Source: Bradyrhizobium sp. Y36
GTDB lineage: Bacteria > Pseudomonadota > Alphaproteobacteria > Rhizobiales > Xanthobacteraceae
Reading direction: 5' to 3'
Length of the DNA stretch: 64,000 nucleotides
Assembly (NCBI RefSeq): GCF_002531575.1
Contig: NZ_NWTI01000003.1
Coordinates: 248,001-312,000 of the forward strand
Made by a program: the position numbers and the translations under genes. This document shows, in pieces, positions 13,339 to 27,186 of the stretch. Position 1 is the first letter of the stretch, and every line of letters begins with the position of its first letter. The notes beneath the pieces were generated by a model. That model saw only the letters and a program-made list of their open reading frames with translations. It was not told the origin of the DNA and ran no database searches.

Positions 13339-14139
13339 ATGGCCAAGGATGCGCCCGCGGAACGCATGAAGCGGAAGGACTACGAGAAGCAGCTGGAAAA
13401 GCTTCAGGTCGAGCTCTGCCATCTCCAGGACTACGTGCGGCAGAACAAGCTCCGCGTCATCGTGCTGTTCGAGGGCCGCGATGCCGCCGGCAAGGGCGGG
13501 ACGATCAAGGCCATCACCGAGAAGGTCAGCCCGCGCGTGTTTCGCGTTGTCGCCCTCCCCGCCCCGTCGGACCGCGAGAAGACCCAGCTGTTCTTCCAGC
13601 GCTACATGGAGAAGTTTCCGGCCGGCGGCGAGATCGTGATCTTCGACCGCAGCTGGTACAACCGCGCCGGCGTCGAATATGTCATGGGCTTCTGCACGCC
13701 CGCCGAGCACGAGCGCTTCCTCAACCTCTGTCCGCAGATGGAGAAATACGTCATCGAGGGCGGCATCATCCTGATCAAGATCTGGCTCGAGGTCGGGATG
13801 GACGAGCAGGAGCGCCGCTTCAAGGCTCGCATCGACGACCCCGTCCGGCAATGGAAGCTCAGTCCGATGGACCTGGAGTCCTTTCGACGGTGGTACGACT
13901 ATTCGCGGGCGCGCGATCTCATGCTCAAGAAAACGAGCACCAGGGATGCGCCCTGGTACATCATCCGCTCCGACGACAAGCGGAAGGCTCGGTTGAACTG
14001 CATCGCTCATCTCCTTGGCGCCATCCCCTACAAGCGCATCAGGAAGGACAAGATCAAGCTGCCGAAGCGCTCCGACAAGGGACGCTACAACGATCAGGCC
14101 AGCCTGAAGGGGATGAACTTCGTCGCCGAGCGATATTGA
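13339..14139 (+). CDS. ppk2: Polyphosphate kinase 2 family protein
   Basis: A 266-residue single-domain PPK2, the usual size. These enzymes transfer phosphate between inorganic polyphosphate and nucleotides (NDP/NTP or NMP/NDP depending on class). Walker A GRDAAGKGG is at residues 46-54 with Lys52. The lid/Walker B region IVIFDRSWYNRAGVE holds Asp103 and Arg104. The conserved WKLSPMDLESFRRWYDYSRA and DAPWYIIRSDDK segments follow. Cytoplasmic. It is the second gene after the FixK-box promoter, suggesting that polyphosphate-dependent nucleotide charging is raised when oxygen falls. The class (I or II) cannot be assigned safely by eye. Confidence 0.95.
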   Translation: MAKDAPAERMKRKDYEKQLEKLQVELCHLQDYVRQNKLRVIVLFEGRDAAGKGGTIKAITEKVSPRVFRVVALPAPSDREKTQLFFQRYMEKFPAGGEIVIFDRSWYNRAGVEYVMGFCTPAEHERFLNLCPQMEKYVIEGGIILIKIWLEVGMDEQERRFKARIDDPVRQWKLSPMDLESFRRWYDYSRARDLMLKKTSTRDAPWYIIRSDDKRKARLNCIAHLLGAIPYKRIRKDKIKLPKRSDKGRYNDQASLKGMNFVAERY

Positions 14140-14182: not shown

Positions 14183-14617
14183 TCACTTCAGGCGGATCGT
14201 GACGCCGCCCACCGCCGCCGACACTTCCGCGCCGACCTTCGGACCGCTGAGCTGGAGGATCACGCCGTTGCCGTTCTGCAATTGAACGGCACCGGCCCCC
14301 GCGGCGATCGCCCCACCGGCTCCGCCCACGGCATAGGAACCCTCGATCGATCCAGGCCCCTTCAGATTGAGCGCCCGGCCGACGAACTTCGTTGTCGAGG
14401 CGCCCACCGTGAGTCCCACGCTCATGCCGGAGACCGTGAACGGATATTTCTTGCCCCGATAGAGCAGAACGCCCTCTCCACCGCCGACGCCGACAATGAA
14501 GCCGCCCTTGGTGAAGACGACGGCGACCTGGCCGGTGTCAGCGCGCGACGGCGTGCTGACACCGGTCAGGACTGCAATCGAGGCAACCAGTGCAATGCTC
14601 TTGGTAAGTTTCTTCAT
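14183..14617 (-). CDS. Small exported conserved protein, paralogue of 4802-5236
   Basis: A 144-residue protein with a signal peptide (SIALVASIAVLTGVSTPSRA) and a Gly-rich beta-type body. It shares length and motifs with the protein at 4802-5236 (see that entry). It starts 20 bp after the AspT-type gene and is probably the last gene of the decarboxylase-exchanger operon. The ATG at 14617 is preferred because an AAGGGG ribosome site is about 10 bp upstream. The in-frame ATG at 14626 would be too close to it. Function unknown. Both paralogues are the last gene of operons that follow a FixK/FNR box, which suggests a shared envelope role under low oxygen. Confidence 0.83.
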   Translation of the reverse strand: MKKLTKSIALVASIAVLTGVSTPSRADTGQVAVVFTKGGFIVGVGGGEGVLLYRGKKYPFTVSGMSVGLTVGASTTKFVGRALNLKGPGSIEGSYAVGGAGGAIAAGAGAVQLQNGNGVILQLSGPKVGAEVSAAVGGVTIRLK

Positions 14618-14637: not shown

Positions 14638-16338
14638 TCATTGCGCGAGGATCATCGCGAAATAGCCGAACACGGTGAGAAGGATGCCCGACACGGCGTA
14701 GCCGACCGGGAATCCGATCCAGGGCACGGAGCTCTGGATCTCGACTGCGGCTTCGCGGCACGGACCGGAATGCGACCGCGCGCCCGCAACGCCGCCCATC
14801 AGCACCGCTGGATTGATCTTGAAGACGTGGAAGCCGATCGCCCAGACGATGAACGGCGGGATCGTGCAGGCGATGAAGCCGACGATGAAGATCTTCAGTG
14901 CCACCGCGCCGGTGAGCTGGGCCAGCAGCCCTGCGCCGGCATTGACGCCGACGATGGCCACGAAGACGACGAGGCCAAGATCCTCCAGCACGTTGCGCGC
15001 GGCATTCGGCGTGTTGCCGAAGAAGCGCAGGCGCGACACGATCGAGGACACGATCACACCCGACAACAGCAGGCCGCCGGCGTTGCCGAGACCGATCTTG
15101 GCGCCGAACGCCGGGAATTCGATCTTGCCGATCAGGAAGCCGATGATCATGCCGACGGCCAGCGTCAGCAGATCGGTCGAGGTGTTGGACCGGGCAATCC
15201 GGCCCCACATCTCGCCGAGCTCGTTCACGGCGGACTTCAGGCCGACCACGGAGACGATGTCCATCCGCTCCAGCTTGGTCTTGAGACCGGCCGGGATCTG
15301 CACGCCGCCCCGCTCGACCTTGGTGACCTGCAACTGGCCGGCGAGCGCGTTGTCGCGGAAGGACTCGAACGTACGTCCCACCATCTCCTTGTTGGTGACG
15401 AGGATCTCGGCCTGGTCCATCGGGATGCCGAGAGTCTTGGCATCGGCGACCTCTGGCCCGATCAGGCCCATCTTGTCGGTGAGATGTTCGGTCGAGCCGC
15501 CGAGTGCGACGATATCGCCCCTCTGCAGCACGAGCTCCGGATCGGCGCCTTGCGCCTCGCCACCGCGTGAGACGTTGACGATGCGGTATTCCGGATTGAC
15601 CGCCCGGAACTTGGCGATACTCATGCCGGCCGTTGCGGCGTTCTCCAGTCGATAGGCGCGCAGGCCGAACTGGCGGAAACCGGTGAGACCGCCACCCTCG
15701 AGATCTTTGACGCCGAATTCCTGCTCGTACTGCCGGGCCGCCGCCTTCGCGTCGACGCCCCACCAGCGCGGCAGATATTTGCAGATCAGGATGATGCCGA
15801 CGGTGCCCCAGATATAGGTGATGCCGTAGGACAGCGCGATCATGCCGGAGGCATCCTCGGCCTTCATGCCCTCGGGCAGCTTGACGACGCCCGAAGTGAC
15901 GGCCTGCTCGGCCGAACCGATCGCCGCCGACATGGTCTGGGATCCCGCCAGCATGCCGCCGGCCGCACCGGGCGGTAGCGAGAACATCTTGGCGCCGATG
16001 ACGACCAGCGCCAGGCCGATCACGCTCGACACCACCGCCAGGATGCAGAACTTCAGCCCGTCGCCCCTGAGGCTGTTGAGGAAGGACGGGCCGACACGCA
16101 GGCCGACGCCGTACATGAAGAGGTAGTAGAACAGGCTCTTCGCGAAATTGTTCAGCTCCAGCTTCACTCCGTAGCTGGAAGCCCAAACGGAAACGCCCGC
16201 CCCGACCACGATGGCGCCGGCAACCATGCCGAGGCCATAGCCCTTGATGCTGGCCCGGCCGATATAGACGGCGAGACCGACGACGAAGAACAGCAGCAGA
16301 TACGGGTTCTGCTGCAGGAACGTGAAGAACGCCTGCAT
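14638..16338 (-). CDS. aspT: AspT-type (AAEx family) amino-acid exchanger
   Basis: A 566-residue polytopic protein with the AAEx layout. An N-terminal membrane block (LLFFVVGLAVYIGRASIKGY, GVGLRVGPSFLNSLRGDGL) is followed by two cytosolic TrkA-C-like domains at about 205-370, then a second membrane block (LEDLGLVVFVAIVGVNAGAG). AspT of Tetragenococcus exchanges aspartate for alanine and so generates proton motive force with a decarboxylase. Here the gene directly follows an Orn/Lys/Arg-type decarboxylase (18 bp gap), so the true substrates may be a basic amino acid and its amine. The ATG at 16338 has a strong GGAGGGG site; the longer frame would need a TTG. The symbol is by family only. Confidence 0.85.
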   Translation of the reverse strand: MQAFFTFLQQNPYLLLFFVVGLAVYIGRASIKGYGLGMVAGAIVVGAGVSVWASSYGVKLELNNFAKSLFYYLFMYGVGLRVGPSFLNSLRGDGLKFCILAVVSSVIGLALVVIGAKMFSLPPGAAGGMLAGSQTMSAAIGSAEQAVTSGVVKLPEGMKAEDASGMIALSYGITYIWGTVGIILICKYLPRWWGVDAKAAARQYEQEFGVKDLEGGGLTGFRQFGLRAYRLENAATAGMSIAKFRAVNPEYRIVNVSRGGEAQGADPELVLQRGDIVALGGSTEHLTDKMGLIGPEVADAKTLGIPMDQAEILVTNKEMVGRTFESFRDNALAGQLQVTKVERGGVQIPAGLKTKLERMDIVSVVGLKSAVNELGEMWGRIARSNTSTDLLTLAVGMIIGFLIGKIEFPAFGAKIGLGNAGGLLLSGVIVSSIVSRLRFFGNTPNAARNVLEDLGLVVFVAIVGVNAGAGLLAQLTGAVALKIFIVGFIACTIPPFIVWAIGFHVFKINPAVLMGGVAGARSHSGPCREAAVEIQSSVPWIGFPVGYAVSGILLTVFGYFAMILAQ

Positions 16339-16355
16339 GTTCGTCCCCTCCAAAC

Positions 16356-19109
16356 CTATGACGCGGCCTTGAGCTTCGGCTGCGCGCCCGGCTTCGGCCG
16401 TCCGAGTTTCGCCAAGGCTTCCGTGCGCACGAGCTTCAAGCCTTCCTTGGCGTCGTAGCCGTGGATCTCCTTCACATCGAGCTTGCGCATGAAGTCGATG
16501 GTCTCCTGCGTGATCACCTGCCCGGGCACCATGATCGGGAAGCCGGGCGGATACGGGATCACGAAGTTGGCCGAGACGAGCTCCGGTCCGGCCTTCAGCC
16601 GCCGGTCGATCTCGGGATCGTTGAGGCGGATGTGCTCGCAGCCGGCGACGTCATAGGCAGTGTAGAAGCCGGTGCGGATATCGCCTTCGTTGGTCTTGGT
16701 GCCGGCGTCGCCGCGGAAGCTCGGGTGGAAATGCGAGAAGTTCGGCAGGTCGGGCACGTCTTTCATGAGGCTCGTCACCCGGGCCTCGAACGTCTTGCGG
16801 GCATTGGCGCCGCCGTGGGCAAGGCCGCGGTCGATCTCGCCCGCGATTTCGGCGAGCACGCGGACGAGATGCGCGACGTCGCTGCGGGTGTTGTTGATGT
16901 TGGACTGGACCAGGACCGAGTTACGCGAGGTCTTGTTGACCTGAATATTGTATTCGTTGGCGAGAATGCCCTTGAACTGCGTGCCGTCATACCCGGCCAT
17001 GCCGCACACCAGCGTCATGCGGGTCGGGTCGAGGCAGAACTCGTCCTCATCCAGGCTCTTGAGCGTATTCGCCCAGTTGACGCCGGGAGCGAGAAAATCC
17101 GTGAAGCCGCTCTGGCGGTATTGCGCGGGCACCATGGCGTCGGCACCGAGGATGCGGAAGTATTTCGAGATCAGCGGATTGTTGTTGACCGCCTGGCGGA
17201 TCGCGAATGCGATCTCGATCGCATTGGCGACGAGACCATAGCCCTCCAGCTCCATCTGCCGCCGCGAGATGTCGAGGCTGGCGATCAATTGCTGGTTCGG
17301 ACTGGTCGAGGCGTGGGTGAACACCGCCTCCTTGAACTGCTGCTCGACCGTGTGGAACTCGACGTCCTTGACCGAGAGCATCGAGCCCTGACGGATCGCC
17401 GACATCGACTTGTGGGTCGAGTTGGTCTGGTAGACACGCAGCCGGATCAGGCGCGGATCCGGGATCAGCCGGGTCTTGAGCAGCACCTCCTCGGACGGGC
17501 TCTTGCCGAGCTCGGTCTGCTGCTTCTCATAGGCCGCAACCGACTTCGGATCGCGCATCCACGCCTCGATCTCGTTGGCGGCGCCAAGTCCAGTGCGACG
17601 GCGCAGGAACGGCGAGAAGCGCGCGAAGCCGAACCAGGCCTCGTCCCACAGGAAGATCAGGTCGGGCTTGATGGCGAGACATTCCTCCATCACCCGGCGG
17701 GTGTTGTAGATGTGGCCGTCGAAGGTGCAATTGGTGAGATCGACCATCTTGACGCGGTCGAGCCGGCCGTCCGCCTTGGCGTTCAGCAGCGCCTGCTTGA
17801 TCGTCTTCAGCGGCACCGCGCCGTACATCGAATATTCCGTCATCGGGAACGCCTCGACATAGAGCGGCTGCGCTCCGGCCAGCACCATTCCGTAGTGATG
17901 CGACTTGTGGCAGTTCCGGTCGACGATCGCGATGTCGCCGGGCGCGAGCAGCGCCTGCACCGCCATCTTGTTCGAGGTCGAGGTACCGTTGGTGACGAAG
18001 AAGACGCGGTCGGCGCCGAGTGCCCTCGCCGCCTTCTCCTGCGCCTTCTTGATGTTTCCGGTCGGCTCGAGCATGCTGTCGAGGCCACCGGTGGTGGCGC
18101 TGCTCTCGGCCAGGAACAGGTTCGGCCCGTAGAACTCGCCCATGTCGCGGATCCAGTCGGACTTGAAGATCGACTTGCCGCGCGCGATCGGCAGCGCGTG
18201 GAAAGTCCCGATCGGACGCTGCGCGTACTTCTTCAGATTGTCGAAGAACGGCGTGTCATAGCGATCCTGGATGCCTTCGAGGATCGACAGATGCAGCTCC
18301 AGAAGCTCTTCAACGGAATAGAAGATGCGGCGAACCACCGCCGCCTCGGGATTGCCGGCCAATTCCTCCACGTCACGGTTCGAGATCATGTAGAGATCGA
18401 GCTCGGGCCTGATGCGCTTGATGATCTGCGCGAGCCGCAGCGCCGACGCGTCGGTTTCGTCGTTGAGACCGGCGGTAGCCATGATCGAGCGCAGCACAGG
18501 CGCATTGTGCCGCGAACGCAGGCCAAAGCCCTCGTTGATGATGACGGCGCCGATGTTTGAATTGAGCATCGTCGCGCAGAAAGCATCCTCCAGGCTGCCG
18601 ACGATGACCGGTTCATAAATGAAGGCATCGACCGGACGCCGTAGCTTGCGCCACTCGGCCGCAAGGGCGGGCCATTGGCCGGGCGACACGCCGGTGACGA
18701 CCAGGGTCTCGAAATACGGCCTGCGCGCGGTAGGCGCGCCGAAGCTCGGCGGCACCAGCTCGGGCGCATCGCCATTGCCGTCATCCTTGACGTTCCAGTC
18801 GCCGGCATGCTGGCGGAAGGACCGGGTGGCCAGCGCCTGGGCAATCCTCGTCGCAAGAGCGAAGGAGGTCGCGCCGTCGCCGGCGGCCGCGGCTTCCCGC
18901 ACCGCCGCCATCAGATGCATCCCGGGATAGCCGTGAAATTCTTCTGTGATCGAAAGATCAGCCAGCACCGCATCGTAGGCCGCGCGATTGCCGTCCCGCG
19001 CCCAGGTCTTGGCTGCTTCGACCAGGTCTCGCCAGTCGTCCGCCCGGGCGCCCGGACCGGAAAAGAACTGGTCGATGCGCTTTTGCGCCGGCTTCGTGTC
19101 CTTGGCCAT
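16356..19109 (-). CDS. PLP-dependent Orn/Lys/Arg-type decarboxylase
   Basis: A 917-residue fold-type-I decarboxylase, longer than the roughly 710-750 residues of E. coli LdcI, SpeC or AdiA. It has an extra N-terminal segment and a wing-like region with PVIVGSLEDAFCATM. The PLP core shows FFVTNGTSTSNKMAVQALL, DRNCHKSHHYGMVLAGAQP and FLWDEAWFGFARFSP. The PLP lysine, Lys567, is in QTNSTHKSMSAIRQGSM. The C-terminal domain has PYPPGFPIMVPGQVI, a strong family marker. Start at 19109 with GGAGAG upstream. It is the first gene of an operon with an AspT-type exchanger, so a decarboxylation/exchange cycle that consumes protons is likely. The amino-acid substrate cannot be read from the sequence. Confidence 0.92.
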   Translation of the reverse strand: MAKDTKPAQKRIDQFFSGPGARADDWRDLVEAAKTWARDGNRAAYDAVLADLSITEEFHGYPGMHLMAAVREAAAAGDGATSFALATRIAQALATRSFRQHAGDWNVKDDGNGDAPELVPPSFGAPTARRPYFETLVVTGVSPGQWPALAAEWRKLRRPVDAFIYEPVIVGSLEDAFCATMLNSNIGAVIINEGFGLRSRHNAPVLRSIMATAGLNDETDASALRLAQIIKRIRPELDLYMISNRDVEELAGNPEAAVVRRIFYSVEELLELHLSILEGIQDRYDTPFFDNLKKYAQRPIGTFHALPIARGKSIFKSDWIRDMGEFYGPNLFLAESSATTGGLDSMLEPTGNIKKAQEKAARALGADRVFFVTNGTSTSNKMAVQALLAPGDIAIVDRNCHKSHHYGMVLAGAQPLYVEAFPMTEYSMYGAVPLKTIKQALLNAKADGRLDRVKMVDLTNCTFDGHIYNTRRVMEECLAIKPDLIFLWDEAWFGFARFSPFLRRRTGLGAANEIEAWMRDPKSVAAYEKQQTELGKSPSEEVLLKTRLIPDPRLIRLRVYQTNSTHKSMSAIRQGSMLSVKDVEFHTVEQQFKEAVFTHASTSPNQQLIASLDISRRQMELEGYGLVANAIEIAFAIRQAVNNNPLISKYFRILGADAMVPAQYRQSGFTDFLAPGVNWANTLKSLDEDEFCLDPTRMTLVCGMAGYDGTQFKGILANEYNIQVNKTSRNSVLVQSNINNTRSDVAHLVRVLAEIAGEIDRGLAHGGANARKTFEARVTSLMKDVPDLPNFSHFHPSFRGDAGTKTNEGDIRTGFYTAYDVAGCEHIRLNDPEIDRRLKAGPELVSANFVIPYPPGFPIMVPGQVITQETIDFMRKLDVKEIHGYDAKEGLKLVRTEALAKLGRPKPGAQPKLKAAS

Positions 19110-19203: not shown

Positions 19204-19217
19204 TTGATCCAAGTCAA
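19204..19217. promoter_or_regulatory. FixK/FNR box upstream of decarboxylase operon
   Basis: TTGATCCAAGTCAA fits TTGA-N6-TCAA with one mismatch to the perfect dyad. The centre is about 101 bp from the decarboxylase ATG, implying a leader near 60 nt if centred at -41.5. The box lies in the gap between this gene and the SulP gene stop (19282). Confidence 0.75.
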
Positions 19218-21728: not shown

Positions 21729-21742
21729 TTGATCTGGATCAA
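21729..21742. promoter_or_regulatory. FixK/FNR box shared by divergent operons
   Basis: TTGATCTGGATCAA is a perfect match to TTGAT-N4-ATCAA. It lies between the divergent starts at 21662 (minus) and 21798 (plus), with centres about 74 and 62 bp away. Class II spacing would give leaders of about 32 and 21 nt, compatible with the AGGGGAG ribosome site at 21784-21790. Confidence 0.86.
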
Positions 21743-21797: not shown

Positions 21798-23486
21798 ATG
21801 GATACCGTCAGGTGGATCATCACCACCGCCCCGGAAATCTTCCTGCTGCTGGCCGTTGCCATCGGCACCATCCTTGGCCGGGTCCGGATCCGCGGTTTTG
21901 CCGTCGGGACCACCGCCTGCATCCTGATCGTGTCCGTGCTGCTCGGACAACTCGGCCATTTTGCGTTTCCCGCTCTGCTGCGCGTGACTCTGTTCAGCCT
22001 GTTCGTGTTCACGATCGGCTATCGATCGGGCCCCGAATTCTTCGCCTCCTTGAGCGTCCGCACGCTGGCTCAAGTCGCCGTGGCGCTGGTGCTGGGCGGC
22101 ACGGGCCTCGTCATCGTCCTGCTGTTCGCCCGCGCCTTCAGCCTCGATCCCGGCACTGCGTCCGGAATTGCGGCCGGAGCGCTGACGCAATCCTCGGTGA
22201 TCGGAACGGCCTCGGGCGCATTGGCCCAGCTCGGCCTCTCCAAGGATCTGCTGAGCCAACAGGAGGCGAACATCGCGGCGGGATACGCGGTGACTTACGT
22301 GCTCGGCTACATCCTGACGCTGCTGTTCGTCCCCTTCGTCGCACCGAAATTGATGCGGATCGACCTGAAGGCCGAGGCCAAGAAGCTGGAGGCCGAGCTT
22401 GCCGGCGGTGATCCGCCCAAGACCGAGAACCTCTCCTACCGCAAGTTCCAGGCCCGCGCCTATCGGGTGACGGCAGGCGCCGGCCGCACCGTCAAGTCGA
22501 TCGAGGAGGAAATCGGAAGCCGCACCGTCGTCGAACGCATCGTCCGTCGAGGCGCGGACGTCGAGCCGCATCTGGAGACCGTGCTCGAAGCCGGCGACGA
22601 CATCGTCATCGCCGGCCGCACAGCCGTGATTGTCGCCGCCAGGCCGATCATCGGCACCGAGATCGACGCCGACGAGATCCTGAAGGCCGTCCCGGGCAAC
22701 GTGATCGAGGTGCTCGTGGACAATCGCCATCTCCACGGCCTTTCGATCCAGGACATCGCAGCACGCGTCGGCGCCGACGCCCGCGGCGTCTTCCTCCGCG
22801 GCCTCACCCGCATGAGCCGCGAGGTGCCCCTGAGCGCGGATACGCGGGTCTATGTCGGGGATGTCATGACGCTGGTCGGCAGCACGCGCCATATCGAGCG
22901 CGCGGCAAAGTCGATCGGTCAGATCCTGCGCTCGGGCGATCGCACCGACATTGCGTTTCTGGCCGCCGGCATCGCAGCCGGTCTGCTCGCGGGGCTCGTC
23001 AGCTTCAGGATCGGCGGCGTTGCCCTGACGCTCGGCGGTGGCGGCGGGGCCCTGATCGCGGGCCTCGTCTGCGGCTGGCTGAGGTCGCGCAAGCCGACCC
23101 TGGGTGCGATGCCTCCGGCCGCGCAACAGACCCTGAGTGACCTCGGGCTCGGCGGTTTCATCGCGGCGATCGGCCTCGGCAACGGCGCTGCCGCCTGGAC
23201 CGCGATCCAGGCGCACGGGCTGCTCCTGGTCGGCATGGGACTCGTCATCACCGTCGTGCCGCTGGTCGTCGCCACGCTGTTTGCCTATCACGTGCTGCGC
23301 ATGAATCCGGTCATCACCTGCGGCGCATTGGCCGGTGCCATGACGGTCGATGCCGCGGTGACCGGCGCCTGCGAGGTGGCAGAGAGCCAGACGCCGGTCC
23401 TCGGCGTCGCCGTCCCCTACGCGGTCGGAAACGTGGTGCTCACCGTCCTCGGACCGATCATCGTGGCTGCAACCTACAGCGGATGA
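21798..23486 (+). CDS. Second AspT-type (AAEx family) exchanger-like protein
   Basis: A 562-residue polytopic protein with the same layout as the protein at 14638-16338. An N-terminal membrane block contains LFVFTIGYRSGPEFFASL, an AAEx marker equivalent to MYGVGLRVGPSFLNSL. Two TrkA-C-like regions follow (about 200-370), then a C-terminal membrane block with LSDLGLGGFIAAIGLGNG and a closing VAVPYAVGNVVLTVLGP. The ATG at 21798 is set by an AGGGGAG site 7 bp upstream. It is followed at 12 bp by a hydrolase gene. The substrate is unknown; no decarboxylase is in this operon, but one lies 2.7 kb away. Confidence 0.85.
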   Translation: MDTVRWIITTAPEIFLLLAVAIGTILGRVRIRGFAVGTTACILIVSVLLGQLGHFAFPALLRVTLFSLFVFTIGYRSGPEFFASLSVRTLAQVAVALVLGGTGLVIVLLFARAFSLDPGTASGIAAGALTQSSVIGTASGALAQLGLSKDLLSQQEANIAAGYAVTYVLGYILTLLFVPFVAPKLMRIDLKAEAKKLEAELAGGDPPKTENLSYRKFQARAYRVTAGAGRTVKSIEEEIGSRTVVERIVRRGADVEPHLETVLEAGDDIVIAGRTAVIVAARPIIGTEIDADEILKAVPGNVIEVLVDNRHLHGLSIQDIAARVGADARGVFLRGLTRMSREVPLSADTRVYVGDVMTLVGSTRHIERAAKSIGQILRSGDRTDIAFLAAGIAAGLLAGLVSFRIGGVALTLGGGGGALIAGLVCGWLRSRKPTLGAMPPAAQQTLSDLGLGGFIAAIGLGNGAAAWTAIQAHGLLLVGMGLVITVVPLVVATLFAYHVLRMNPVITCGALAGAMTVDAAVTGACEVAESQTPVLGVAVPYAVGNVVLTVLGPIIVAATYSG

Positions 23487-25572: not shown

Positions 25573-26202
25573 CTAATGCTCGTTGGCACCCAGCATTCCG
25601 AGCCGCTCCGCGATCGAAACCAGCGCTGCAAGCGATTGGACCTGCATCTTTTCCATCACCTGATGGCGATGCGCTTTCACGGTGCGTTCGGTGGTTCCGA
25701 GCTCATGCGCAATCTGCTTGTTGATCCGGCCGCGCACGATGAGGTCGAACACCTGCCGCTCGCGTTGCGTCAGCGTGGCCAGATGAGTTCGAAACGTGTC
25801 GAGCTTGGTGCGCTGGGCGCGCGCGGCCCGCTGTCCCGCCAGAGCCCGCTCGATGGCATCAATCAATTGCTCCGATGATATCGGCTTGGTCAGGAAGTCT
25901 TCCGCCCCCGCCTTGATCGCCCGCACGGTGGTCGGAGTATCGGCGTGCCCGGTCAGGAAGATGATCGGCAGCGTCGAGCCGGATGCGACCAGCCGCGCCT
26001 GCAAATCGGGACCGCTCAATCCGGGGATACGCACGTCCAGCAAAATGCATCCCGCCTGCGCGTCGTCGAGCGAGGAGTCCAGCAACTCCAGCGCCGACGC
26101 ATAGGTCACGACCTCGTAGCCCGCGAGTTTCAGGCGCCGCCCGATTGCCGTCCGAAACGACTCATCGTCGTCAACTACGTGAACCAGACCCGGCACCTTC
26201 AA
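25573..26202 (-). CDS. FixJ/NarL-type response regulator
   Basis: A 209-residue regulator with an N-terminal receiver (VHVVDDDESF, phospho-acceptor Asp56 in ILLDVRIPG, Lys in DFLTKPIS). A short linker leads to a LuxR-type helix-turn-helix (LTQRERQVFDLIVRGRINKQ, IAHELGTTERTVKAHR). This is the FixJ/TodT layout. In rhizobia FixJ activates fixK under low oxygen. Here a FixK-like gene lies 300 bp away in the opposite direction, so the pair may be a local FixJ-FixK-type module. No FixL-like heme sensor is in the window; the kinase at 9054 is one possible partner. Confidence 0.93.
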   Translation of the reverse strand: MKVPGLVHVVDDDESFRTAIGRRLKLAGYEVVTYASALELLDSSLDDAQAGCILLDVRIPGLSGPDLQARLVASGSTLPIIFLTGHADTPTTVRAIKAGAEDFLTKPISSEQLIDAIERALAGQRAARAQRTKLDTFRTHLATLTQRERQVFDLIVRGRINKQIAHELGTTERTVKAHRHQVMEKMQVQSLAALVSIAERLGMLGANEH

Positions 26203-26502: not shown

Positions 26503-27186
26503 ATGTTTGTTCGCATCACCACCGATTCCGCACTGCGCCCCAATTCCCTCCGCGACCTCGGAATGACCAGCGATTCAAGGGCGCTCGTCAATTTGAGCGA
26601 ATTTTCTTACAGAAAGGGAACAGAGATTTACGGTGAGAAGGAGCCCGCCGAATACGTCTATCAGGTCAAGGCTGGCGCCGTCCGAAGCTACAAGCTGCTG
26701 TCGGACGGCCGCAGGCAGATCGGAGCATTCCACCTCAGCGGCGATATTTTCGGCCTCGAGAACGGCGCCGAGCACCGGTTCACGACGGAAGCGGTCGTCG
26801 ACACCACGGTGCGCCTGATCAAGCGGCAGAGTCTCGAAACGGTGGCCGAGAGCGATGCAATGGTGGCCAAGAACCTGCTCAGCATGACCACGACCAATCT
26901 CCAGCATGCTGAAGACCACATGCTGCTGCTTGGCCGCAAGACCTCGTTGGAGCGGGTCGCGGCGTTCCTGCTCGAAATGGACAAGCGGCTGACGGCGGCG
27001 GGCGTCATGGCGCTCCCGATGTCGCGGCGCGATATCGCGGACTATCTCGGCCTGACGCTGGAGACGGTCTCGCGCGCCCTGTCGCGCCTGCACGAGCTCG
27101 GCGTCCTCGGCTTCATCGGCAACACCCAGCGTCAGATCGTGTTGCTCGACCGGACCCAGCTCGCCGGCCTCGATCTTCAATCTTGA
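26503..27186 (+). CDS. FixK-type Crp/Fnr transcription regulator
   Basis: A 227-residue Crp/Fnr protein. A cyclic-nucleotide-binding-like sensor (YQVKAGAVRSYKLLSDGRRQ, IGAFHLSGDIFGLE) leads to a dimerisation helix (LGRKTSLERVAAFLLEMDKR) and a DNA-binding winged helix (MSRRDIADYLGLTLETVSRA). The recognition helix carries the ExxSR signature (ETVSR) that in FNR and FixK reads TTGA half-sites. The protein has no cysteine, so it cannot hold FNR's iron-sulfur cluster and should be FixK-like, controlled at the level of its expression. Six boxes of the type it should bind lie in the surrounding 20 kb. The ATG at 26503 has a GAGGG site 8 bp upstream. Confidence 0.94.
   Translation: MFVRITTDSALRPNSLRDLGMTSDSRALVNLSEFSYRKGTEIYGEKEPAEYVYQVKAGAVRSYKLLSDGRRQIGAFHLSGDIFGLENGAEHRFTTEAVVDTTVRLIKRQSLETVAESDAMVAKNLLSMTTTNLQHAEDHMLLLGRKTSLERVAAFLLEMDKRLTAAGVMALPMSRRDIADYLGLTLETVSRALSRLHELGVLGFIGNTQRQIVLLDRTQLAGLDLQS

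What the first reader, a model, noticed from the sequence alone, without database searches (positions are those of the whole stretch)
14638..19109. AspT-type exchanger coupled to an Orn/Lys/Arg decarboxylase rather than an aspartate decarboxylase
AspT is known to work with L-aspartate 4-decarboxylase. Here the exchanger directly follows a long (917-residue) basic-amino-acid-type decarboxylase under a FixK/FNR box. This suggests a different decarboxylation/exchange cycle, with lysine, ornithine or arginine and the product amine, used for proton consumption or energy under oxygen limitation.
Basis: partly seen in the sequence, partly recalled or inferred. Interest (0 to 1): 0.62.

Follow-up and report, generated by a model that had tools for sequence, protein, structure and literature searches.

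The report
Oxygen-limited decarboxylase–exchanger pair in Bradyrhizobium
A soil bacterium of a legume-nodulating genus carries, behind a likely low-oxygen switch, an uncharacterised amino-acid decarboxylase next to an AspT-like membrane exchanger; gene neighbourhoods and active-site residues suggest that the pair handles an acidic amino acid such as glutamate or aspartate rather than lysine, ornithine or arginine.

Summary
In detail: a 917-aa Orn/Lys/Arg-fold decarboxylase (DC, 16356-19109) and an AspT-family exchanger (ASP1, 14638-16338), 17 bp apart, stand behind a FixK/FNR-type box (19204-19217) that precedes DC in 76 of 76 loci of the genus.

The link is real. Intact AspT-family genes lie within 6 kb of DC in 78 of 94 type A loci and 0 of 24 type B relatives. 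Of 248 family genomes, 13 of 13 with type A DC have AspT, against 23 of 234 without. The 15 Bradyrhizobium exceptions all hold an AspD-AspT-AspT cluster, also boxed.

A lysine, ornithine or arginine substrate is doubtful. Neighbours include aspartate 4-decarboxylase and a glutamate symporter. CadA Glu526 is Asn here, and three arginines missing from four canonical enzymes are invariant in 119 of 119 relatives. The closest solved structure, Rv2531c, has no known substrate.

Best reading: an oxygen-limited decarboxylation/antiport cycle for an acidic amino acid (glutamate or aspartate) that uses up protons and builds membrane potential. The cycle is inferred; nothing was measured.

The parts
16356..19109 (-). 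DC: 917-aa OKR-fold PLP decarboxylase of the Rv2531c-like clade, type A
   Evidence: AlphaFold2 model mean pLDDT 83.2, best match 9n0o Z 47.8, rmsd 1.7 over 754 residues, 43% id; LdcI 3n75 Z 30.3, rmsd 7.5 over 614
14638..16338 (-). ASP1: AspT-family (AAEx) exchanger, clade I
   Evidence: clade I of 6 rows with support 100/100; E 1.4e-36 to solved AspT 8xw5
19204..19217 (.). FixK/FNR-type box TTGATCCAAGTCAA (near-palindrome) in front of DC
   Evidence: within 200 bp upstream of DC in 76 of 76 Bradyrhizobium loci
21798..23486 (+). ASP2: second AspT-family exchanger, clade II (TIGR03802 527.7 vs cut-off 546.95)
21729..21742 (.). FixK/FNR-type box TTGATCTGGATCAA in front of ASP2
   Evidence: a box precedes 48 of 52 ASP2 genes of the other loci
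14183..14617 (-). small protein of 144 aa starting 20 bp behind ASP1; homologs lie behind DC in most Bradyrhizobium loci; one homolog matches EipA weakly (22.8 vs cut-off 30.8)
   Evidence: no Pfam match for the window copy
26503..27183 (+). FixK-like Crp/Fnr regulator, a candidate to bind the boxes
   Evidence: NCBIfam FixK 213.4 bits, below its cut-off of 300
25573..26202 (-). FixJ-like response regulator
   Evidence: NCBIfam FixJ 200 bits, below its cut-off of 255

Best explanation
DC and ASP1 are one transport/decarboxylation cycle switched on at low oxygen. ASP1 brings in an anionic (acidic) amino acid, most likely L-glutamate or L-aspartate. DC removes its alpha-carboxyl group with PLP, taking up one cytoplasmic proton and releasing CO2. 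ASP1 exports the neutral omega-amino acid formed (GABA or beta-alanine) in exchange for the next substrate. Each turn consumes a proton inside and moves net negative charge inward, so it alkalinises the cytoplasm and builds proton-motive force when respiration is oxygen-limited. Shown here: operon layout, conserved box, co-occurrence, clade structure, residue changes. Inferred: substrate, direction, electrogenicity, regulation by oxygen, physiological role.
For: Genomic link: AspT-family gene within 6 kb of DC in 78 of 94 type A loci and 0 of 24 type B loci; 13 of 13 vs 23 of 234 genomes, Fisher 1.6e-12, and in the genus 10 of 10 vs 1 of 7. The 15 Bradyrhizobium genomes whose DC has no intact exchanger within 6 kb all hold a cluster of aspartate 4-decarboxylase, a clade III and a clade IV exchanger, with a FixK-type box before the clade III gene in 15 of 15; in 9 of 15 it lies 10.1 to 14.9 kb from DC on the same contig. 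Four AspT clades recur beside DC. Acidic-amino-acid neighbours: aspartate 4-decarboxylase in 13 of 14 loci with clade III but not I and in 0 of 63 clade I loci, three copies checked at 759-793 bits vs cut-off 435.1; GltS-type glutamate symporter in 5 of 94 (PF03616 for two of them). Active site: N725 for CadA E526; R310, R573, R729 invariant in 119 of 119 relatives against G/G/H/G, S/S/S/S, D/P/L/L in AdiA/CadA/SpeC/own canonical paralog. Known AspT-family cargo is acidic or neutral (Asp/Ala; succinate and glutamate exporters, PMC9527358 passages). No usual glutamate decarboxylase: the single PF00282 gene scores 20.7 vs 380.4 for TIGR01788.
Against: No substrate measurement exists. AdiA also lacks Glu at the 526 position (Thr), so its loss alone does not exclude a basic substrate. 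R310 lies in a low-confidence stretch of the model (305-310), and no contact with substrate could be checked. The same arginines occur in type B relatives that have no exchanger, so they do not tie the substrate to AspT. GltS is in only 5 of 94 loci, none of them Bradyrhizobium, and the one copy checked falls just short of the gltS equivalog (304.9 vs 310.75). The box is nearly absent outside Bradyrhizobium (1 of 18), so oxygen control is not general. 76 of 94 loci are one genus and are not independent. Aspartate 4-decarboxylase and clade III could serve each other with no part for DC.
Confidence: 0.58

Rival explanations
1. One reading: a basic amino acid (lysine, ornithine, arginine) is exchanged for its amine by an AspT-type carrier with altered specificity.
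For: The fold and PLP site are those of basic amino acid decarboxylases; a paper passage describes the superfamily as acting on Lys, Arg and Orn (PMC7806604). ASP1 is far from AspT proper (376.6 vs cut-off 546.95) and has its own conserved second-repeat motif RSHSGPCREA, so a new cargo is possible.
Against: Asn for CadA Glu526 and three gained arginines; aspartate decarboxylase and glutamate symporter among the neighbours, and no amine-handling gene among the neighbours that I identified, though many neighbours were not identified; NCBIfam Lys/Arg/Orn decarboxylase models are missed by far (best 179 vs cut-off 968). In M. tuberculosis the homolog was not crucial for growth on arginine (PMC4569260 passages).
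Confidence: 0.15
2. DC acts on another carboxylate-bearing or unusual amino acid (for example cysteate, 2-aminoadipate or diaminopimelate) and ASP1 carries that pair.
For: The arginines suggest a negative charge on the substrate but not its identity; the substrate of Rv2531c is open.
Against: The neighbours found point to the common acids aspartate and glutamate.
Confidence: 0.15
3. DC and the exchangers share an oxygen-regulated island but not a substrate: the exchangers serve aspartate/alanine or C4-dicarboxylates, DC makes an amine or omega-amino acid for internal use.
For: 16 of 94 type A loci lack an intact AspT gene within 6 kb, 15 of them with DC apart from an aspartate decarboxylase/AspT cluster that is complete in itself; type B DCs never have an exchanger (0 of 24); several loci carry two exchangers.
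Against: Co-occurrence 13 of 13 vs 23 of 234; AspT gene within 200 bp of DC in 76 of 94; use of different AspT clades beside DC.
Confidence: 0.12

Closest known systems
AspD-AspT aspartate/alanine cycle (Tetragenococcus halophilus)
   Same: PLP decarboxylase plus AspT-family exchanger; electrogenic Asp(-)/Ala(0) exchange (PMC9508256 abstract, PMC9527358 passages)
   Different: The enzyme here is of another PLP family (OKR fold); AspD is absent from the own genome; ASP1 is a separate clade and misses TIGR03802
Lysine/arginine/ornithine acid-resistance systems (CadA-CadB, AdiA-AdiC in E. coli; SpeF-PotE recalled)
   Same: Decarboxylase fold, PLP lysine, decarboxylase-antiporter logic
   Different: Exchanger of the AspT family instead (unrelatedness to CadB/AdiC recalled, not tested); active-site changes N725, R310, R573, R729; FixK-type box
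Rv2531c of M. tuberculosis (PDB 9n0o, 9n0n, 9n0p)
   Same: Closest solved structure: E 3.4e-221, Z 47.8 with 43% identity over 754 aligned residues; shares the Arg310, Arg573 and Asn725 changes, read from the alignment
   Different: Has Ile for R729 and Ala for K312; its activity is unknown (review passage); its gene neighbours were not seen here (one search failed)
GadB-GadC glutamate/GABA system (recalled)
   Same: Would be the functional analogue if the substrate is glutamate
   Different: Decarboxylase of family PF00282 and another antiporter family (recalled)

Membership tests
Orn/Lys/Arg decarboxylase superfamily (OKR_DC, PF01276) | Profile match and fold | tested here: met
   240 bits vs 27; LdcI 3n75 Z 30.3, rmsd 7.5, 614 aligned
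Orn/Lys/Arg decarboxylase superfamily (OKR_DC, PF01276) | PLP lysine, His, Asp, Trp of the core | tested here: met
   K567, H401, D489, W492 in 119 of 119 relatives and in four canonical enzymes
Characterised lysine, arginine or ornithine decarboxylase (NCBIfam models) | Curated score | tested here: not met
   LdcC 179 vs 968; arginine decarboxylase 166.5 vs 1167; ornithine decarboxylase 147.5 vs 794
Characterised lysine, arginine or ornithine decarboxylase (NCBIfam models) | PGHxxG-type motif and Glu at CadA 526 (Glu in CadA, SpeC and own paralog; Thr in AdiA) | tested here: not met
   LPIARGKS and Asn725 instead
Characterised lysine, arginine or ornithine decarboxylase (NCBIfam models) | Activity on a basic amino acid | not testable with these tools
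   needs an enzyme assay
AspT/AAEx exchanger family (PF06826, TC 2.A.81) | Profile match, duplicated membrane domain with TrkA_C domains | tested here: met
   172.4 bits vs 27, two stretches; TrkA_C 47.9, two stretches
AspT proper (aspartate:alanine antiporter, TIGR03802) | Curated equivalog score | tested here: not met
   ASP1 376.6 and ASP2 527.7 vs 546.95; clade III copies of three other type A loci 700-713
AspT proper (aspartate:alanine antiporter, TIGR03802) | Residue R76 involved in transport (title of a cited paper only) | tested here: met
   ASP1 GLRVGP, ASP2 GYRSGP; but G in clade III and L or S in clade IV, so the residue does not sort AspT proper from the rest
AspD-AspT cycle | Aspartate 4-decarboxylase in the genome | tested here: not met
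   best TIGR03801 match 51.9 bits vs 435.1
FixK/FNR regulon | Conserved TTGA-N6-TCAA box in the promoter (motif recalled) | tested here: met
   76 of 76 Bradyrhizobium loci; a consensus match does not show binding
FixK/FNR regulon | Expression controlled by FixK/FNR | not testable with these tools
   no expression data seen; the paper search made for it (listing only) showed no title or abstract start naming this pair

The most novel reading that the evidence does not exclude
The whole Rv2531c-like clade consists not of basic amino acid decarboxylases but of acidic amino acid decarboxylases built on the Orn/Lys/Arg fold, a substrate class not known to me for that fold. In Bradyrhizobium one of them runs a FixK-driven glutamate/GABA or aspartate/beta-alanine exchange cycle with AspT-family carriers of several clades, giving proton-motive force and pH control at low oxygen, for example in nodules.
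Probability: 0.4. Interest if true: 0.78.

Novelty: new variant of a known kind. Interest (0 to 1): 0.6.

Why it matters
It gives an orphan enzyme family (including a structurally solved but functionally unknown mycobacterial protein) a concrete, testable substrate class, and shows a decarboxylase found beside exchangers of four AspT clades. If true, rhizobia have a low-oxygen, non-respiratory way to gain proton-motive force and remove acid, which would bear on life in the oxygen-poor nodule.

Tried and rejected
Considered and rejected: chance adjacency (co-occurrence and type B control); that DC simply replaces aspartate 4-decarboxylase (both occur within 10 kb in 15 of 94 loci, and in the same genome in 15 of 15 Bradyrhizobium exceptions); that the exchanger serves a usual glutamate decarboxylase elsewhere in the genome (none at cut-off).

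Mended on checking: I first took the 15 Bradyrhizobium loci without an exchanger as unlinked cases with AspT 'elsewhere'. Fetching the places showed an AspD-clade III-clade IV cluster in 15 of 15; in 9 it starts just beyond the 10-kb flank of DC on the same contig, in one (L140) the two contigs share about 100 bases, in five no overlap was found.

Limits: Of 407 relatives in the named collection only the best 80 were returned, which favours near relatives; the genome surveys are samples of 289, 248, 347 and 398 genomes. The clade I genomes were not all searched for an aspartate decarboxylase or clade III gene beyond 10 kb; the own genome was. Literature: searches showed, in their listings, no paper that describes an AspT-family exchanger paired with an OKR-type decarboxylase; one search matched 1,500 papers of which 20 were listed; only open-licence papers are held. 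The structure paper on Rv2531c is not held; what is said of it comes from a review passage. No model coordinates were available, so residue distances were not measured. That lysine is bound by CadA Glu526 is a docking result and an older proposal quoted in PMC5607190, not a solved complex. The trees carry long-branch warnings, clade III has support 91/89, and type B is not clearly one clade (42/0).

Rows dropped before counts: six duplicate loci (L080, L081, L082, L084, L086, L087, same DC as L104, L114, L112, L120, L134, L156); five fragmentary DCs (L047, L048, L049, L092, L159) are left out of the 94 + 24 (one search counted L159 in, hence 95 type A there). The type A/B line was drawn at 1030 bits by me. 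In the 13 of 13 vs 23 of 234 table, read off by hand (same handles, lists partly cut), a genome counts as having AspT if its best PF06826 hit is E 1e-28 or better; the next best hits are 1.3e-16 (G328) and 3.6e-7. The tool's own tally over the Pfam cut-off is 48 of 248. G328, whose DC and exchangers are in pieces, was left out. The AspT tree used 22 representatives of 140 genes plus the two of the window and YbjL.

Full report
What is there. The window is Bradyrhizobium DNA: nearly all close named relatives of DC, up to 99% identical, are titled Bradyrhizobium. On the minus strand a 917-aa decarboxylase (DC, 16356-19109) is followed after 17 bp by a 566-aa AspT-family exchanger (ASP1, 14638-16338). 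A near-palindromic FixK/FNR-type box stands in front of DC at 19204-19217.

More than chance. The window has six such boxes against 0.35 expected. The box occurs within 200 bp upstream of DC in 76 of 76 Bradyrhizobium loci, 1 of 18 other type A loci (L160, Rhizobium) and 0 of 24 type B loci. A second exchanger gene, ASP2 (21798-23486, plus strand), has its own box at 21729-21742. In the other loci a box precedes 48 of 52 ASP2 genes, 6 of 15 clade III genes, 0 of 11 clade IV genes and 0 of 62 ASP1 genes, which follow DC. A FixK-like and a FixJ-like regulator lie at 25.6-27.2 kb, both below their NCBIfam cut-offs.

What the decarboxylase is. It has the Orn/Lys/Arg decarboxylase fold, but its nearest solved relative is Rv2531c of M. 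tuberculosis (model match Z 47.8, rmsd 1.7, 754 aligned), an enzyme whose activity a 2026 review calls not clarified (PMC12910592, passages). In a tree with AdiA, CadA, SpeC and the genome's own canonical paralog, DC and its relatives are set apart with 100/100 support, and the type A group has 99/98 (long-branch warnings apply).

Two kinds of relatives. Relatives from samples of the class, family, order and phylum and the best 80 named loci were split by score into type A (94 full loci) and type B (24). Type A sits with AspT-family exchangers: 78 of 94 within 6 kb, 76 of 94 within 200 bp; outside Bradyrhizobium 17 of 18 within 6 kb. The one exception there, L161, is cut by its contig end. Type B never does (0 of 24); it sits with an ATP-grasp-like protein (21 of 24), a C45 hydrolase (21 of 24) and a carbon-nitrogen hydrolase (19 of 24) (families).

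Co-occurrence. In the same 248 genomes of the family, all 13 with a full type A DC have an AspT gene against 23 of 234 without; in the genus 10 of 10 against 1 of 7 (Fisher 1.6e-12 and 5.7e-4; the genomes are related, so these values overstate independence). Fifteen Bradyrhizobium loci have DC without an intact exchanger within 6 kb. All 15 genomes hold a cluster of aspartate 4-decarboxylase, a clade III and a clade IV exchanger, with a FixK-type box before the clade III gene in 15 of 15; in 9 of 15 the exchangers lie 10.1 to 14.9 kb from DC on the same contig. In L106, L111 and L152 fragments of ASP1 or ASP2 remain beside DC.

Which exchangers. AspT-family genes beside DC fall into four clades: I (ASP1), II (ASP2), III (three copies score as AspT proper) and IV. 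Aspartate 4-decarboxylase accompanies clade III (13 of 14 loci with III but not I) and not clade I (0 of 63) within 10 kb. Together, the 76 Bradyrhizobium loci divide into 53 with clade I beside DC, 8 with clade III beside DC and 15 with the clade III cluster farther off. So in some lineages DC shares its genome with what looks like a complete aspartate/alanine cycle, and in others, including this window, a different exchanger stands with DC. A Na+/glutamate symporter lies beside DC in 5 of 94 (L168, L169, L170, L197, L198; PF03616 checked for L170 and L197; L170 is just below the gltS equivalog cut-off, 304.9 vs 310.75).

Active site. The PLP lysine K567, H401, D489 and W492 are kept in 119 of 119 relatives. 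At the place of CadA Glu526, named as a postulated lysine-binding residue (PMC5607190, passage), all 119 have Asn; AdiA has Thr. R310 (in LPIARGKS, where canonical enzymes have a PGHxxG-type motif), R573 and R729 are invariant in all 119 and absent from the four canonical enzymes compared. This turns a site described as lined by negative charges (PMC4832331, passage) towards positive and fits a substrate with a side-chain carboxylate. The limits: four comparison enzymes only; R310 lies in a weakly predicted stretch; no distances were measured; type B shares the changes; many of the 119 are near-copies.

Mechanism. The most economical reading is a precursor/product exchange cycle for glutamate or aspartate, induced at low oxygen. 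Decarboxylation uses a proton, the exchanger trades an anion for a neutral product, and the cell gains membrane potential and loses acid. For AspT itself an electrogenic Asp(-)/Ala(0) exchange is reported (PMC9508256, abstract). The transfer to ASP1 is inference. Glutamate is slightly favoured by GltS and by the lack of a usual glutamate decarboxylase; aspartate by the recurrent AspT and AspD.

Verdict. The pairing is real and conserved, oxygen control is likely in Bradyrhizobium, and the lysine/ornithine/arginine assignment is doubtful but not excluded. It is a new variant of the decarboxylase-antiporter kind with an orphan enzyme; a substrate assay would settle the main point.

Noticed in passing
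L043:8565-15077; L044-L046, L201-L208, L222-L229 (not L209-L211): Type B relatives of DC form a conserved cluster with an ATP-grasp-like protein (NCBIfam PRK06524 'biotin carboxylase'), a C45 NTN hydrolase and mostly a CN-hydrolase, suggesting an unknown amide or peptide pathway.
   Followed up: partly
window 7926, 9029, 12765, 27772: Four further FixK/FNR-type boxes near other genes (DUF3300 protein, ABC substrate-binding protein, DUF3302/HlyD-like pair, ion channel): the region looks like a low-oxygen island.
   Followed up: no
window 13339-14139: PPK2-type polyphosphate kinase close to the pair; in a genome of another family of the order (L196) a PPK2 gene also stands beside DC.
   Followed up: no
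L092 (G328): DC, ASP1 and ASP2 are all present only as pieces, as if the unit decayed together.
   Followed up: partly
L112: A contig titled Frankia sp. RB7 carries the Bradyrhizobium locus; a contig of equal length with the same DC is in G492, a genome placed in the window's genus, so the title is probably wrong.
   Followed up: no
L001:1039-3435 (G000:C34): The genome also has a canonical 798-aa Orn/Lys/Arg decarboxylase that groups with SpeC in the tree.
   Followed up: partly
L167, L168, L169, L170, L199, L200 near DC: A TPR protein (TPR39) or a porin recurs near type A DC outside Bradyrhizobium.
   Followed up: no
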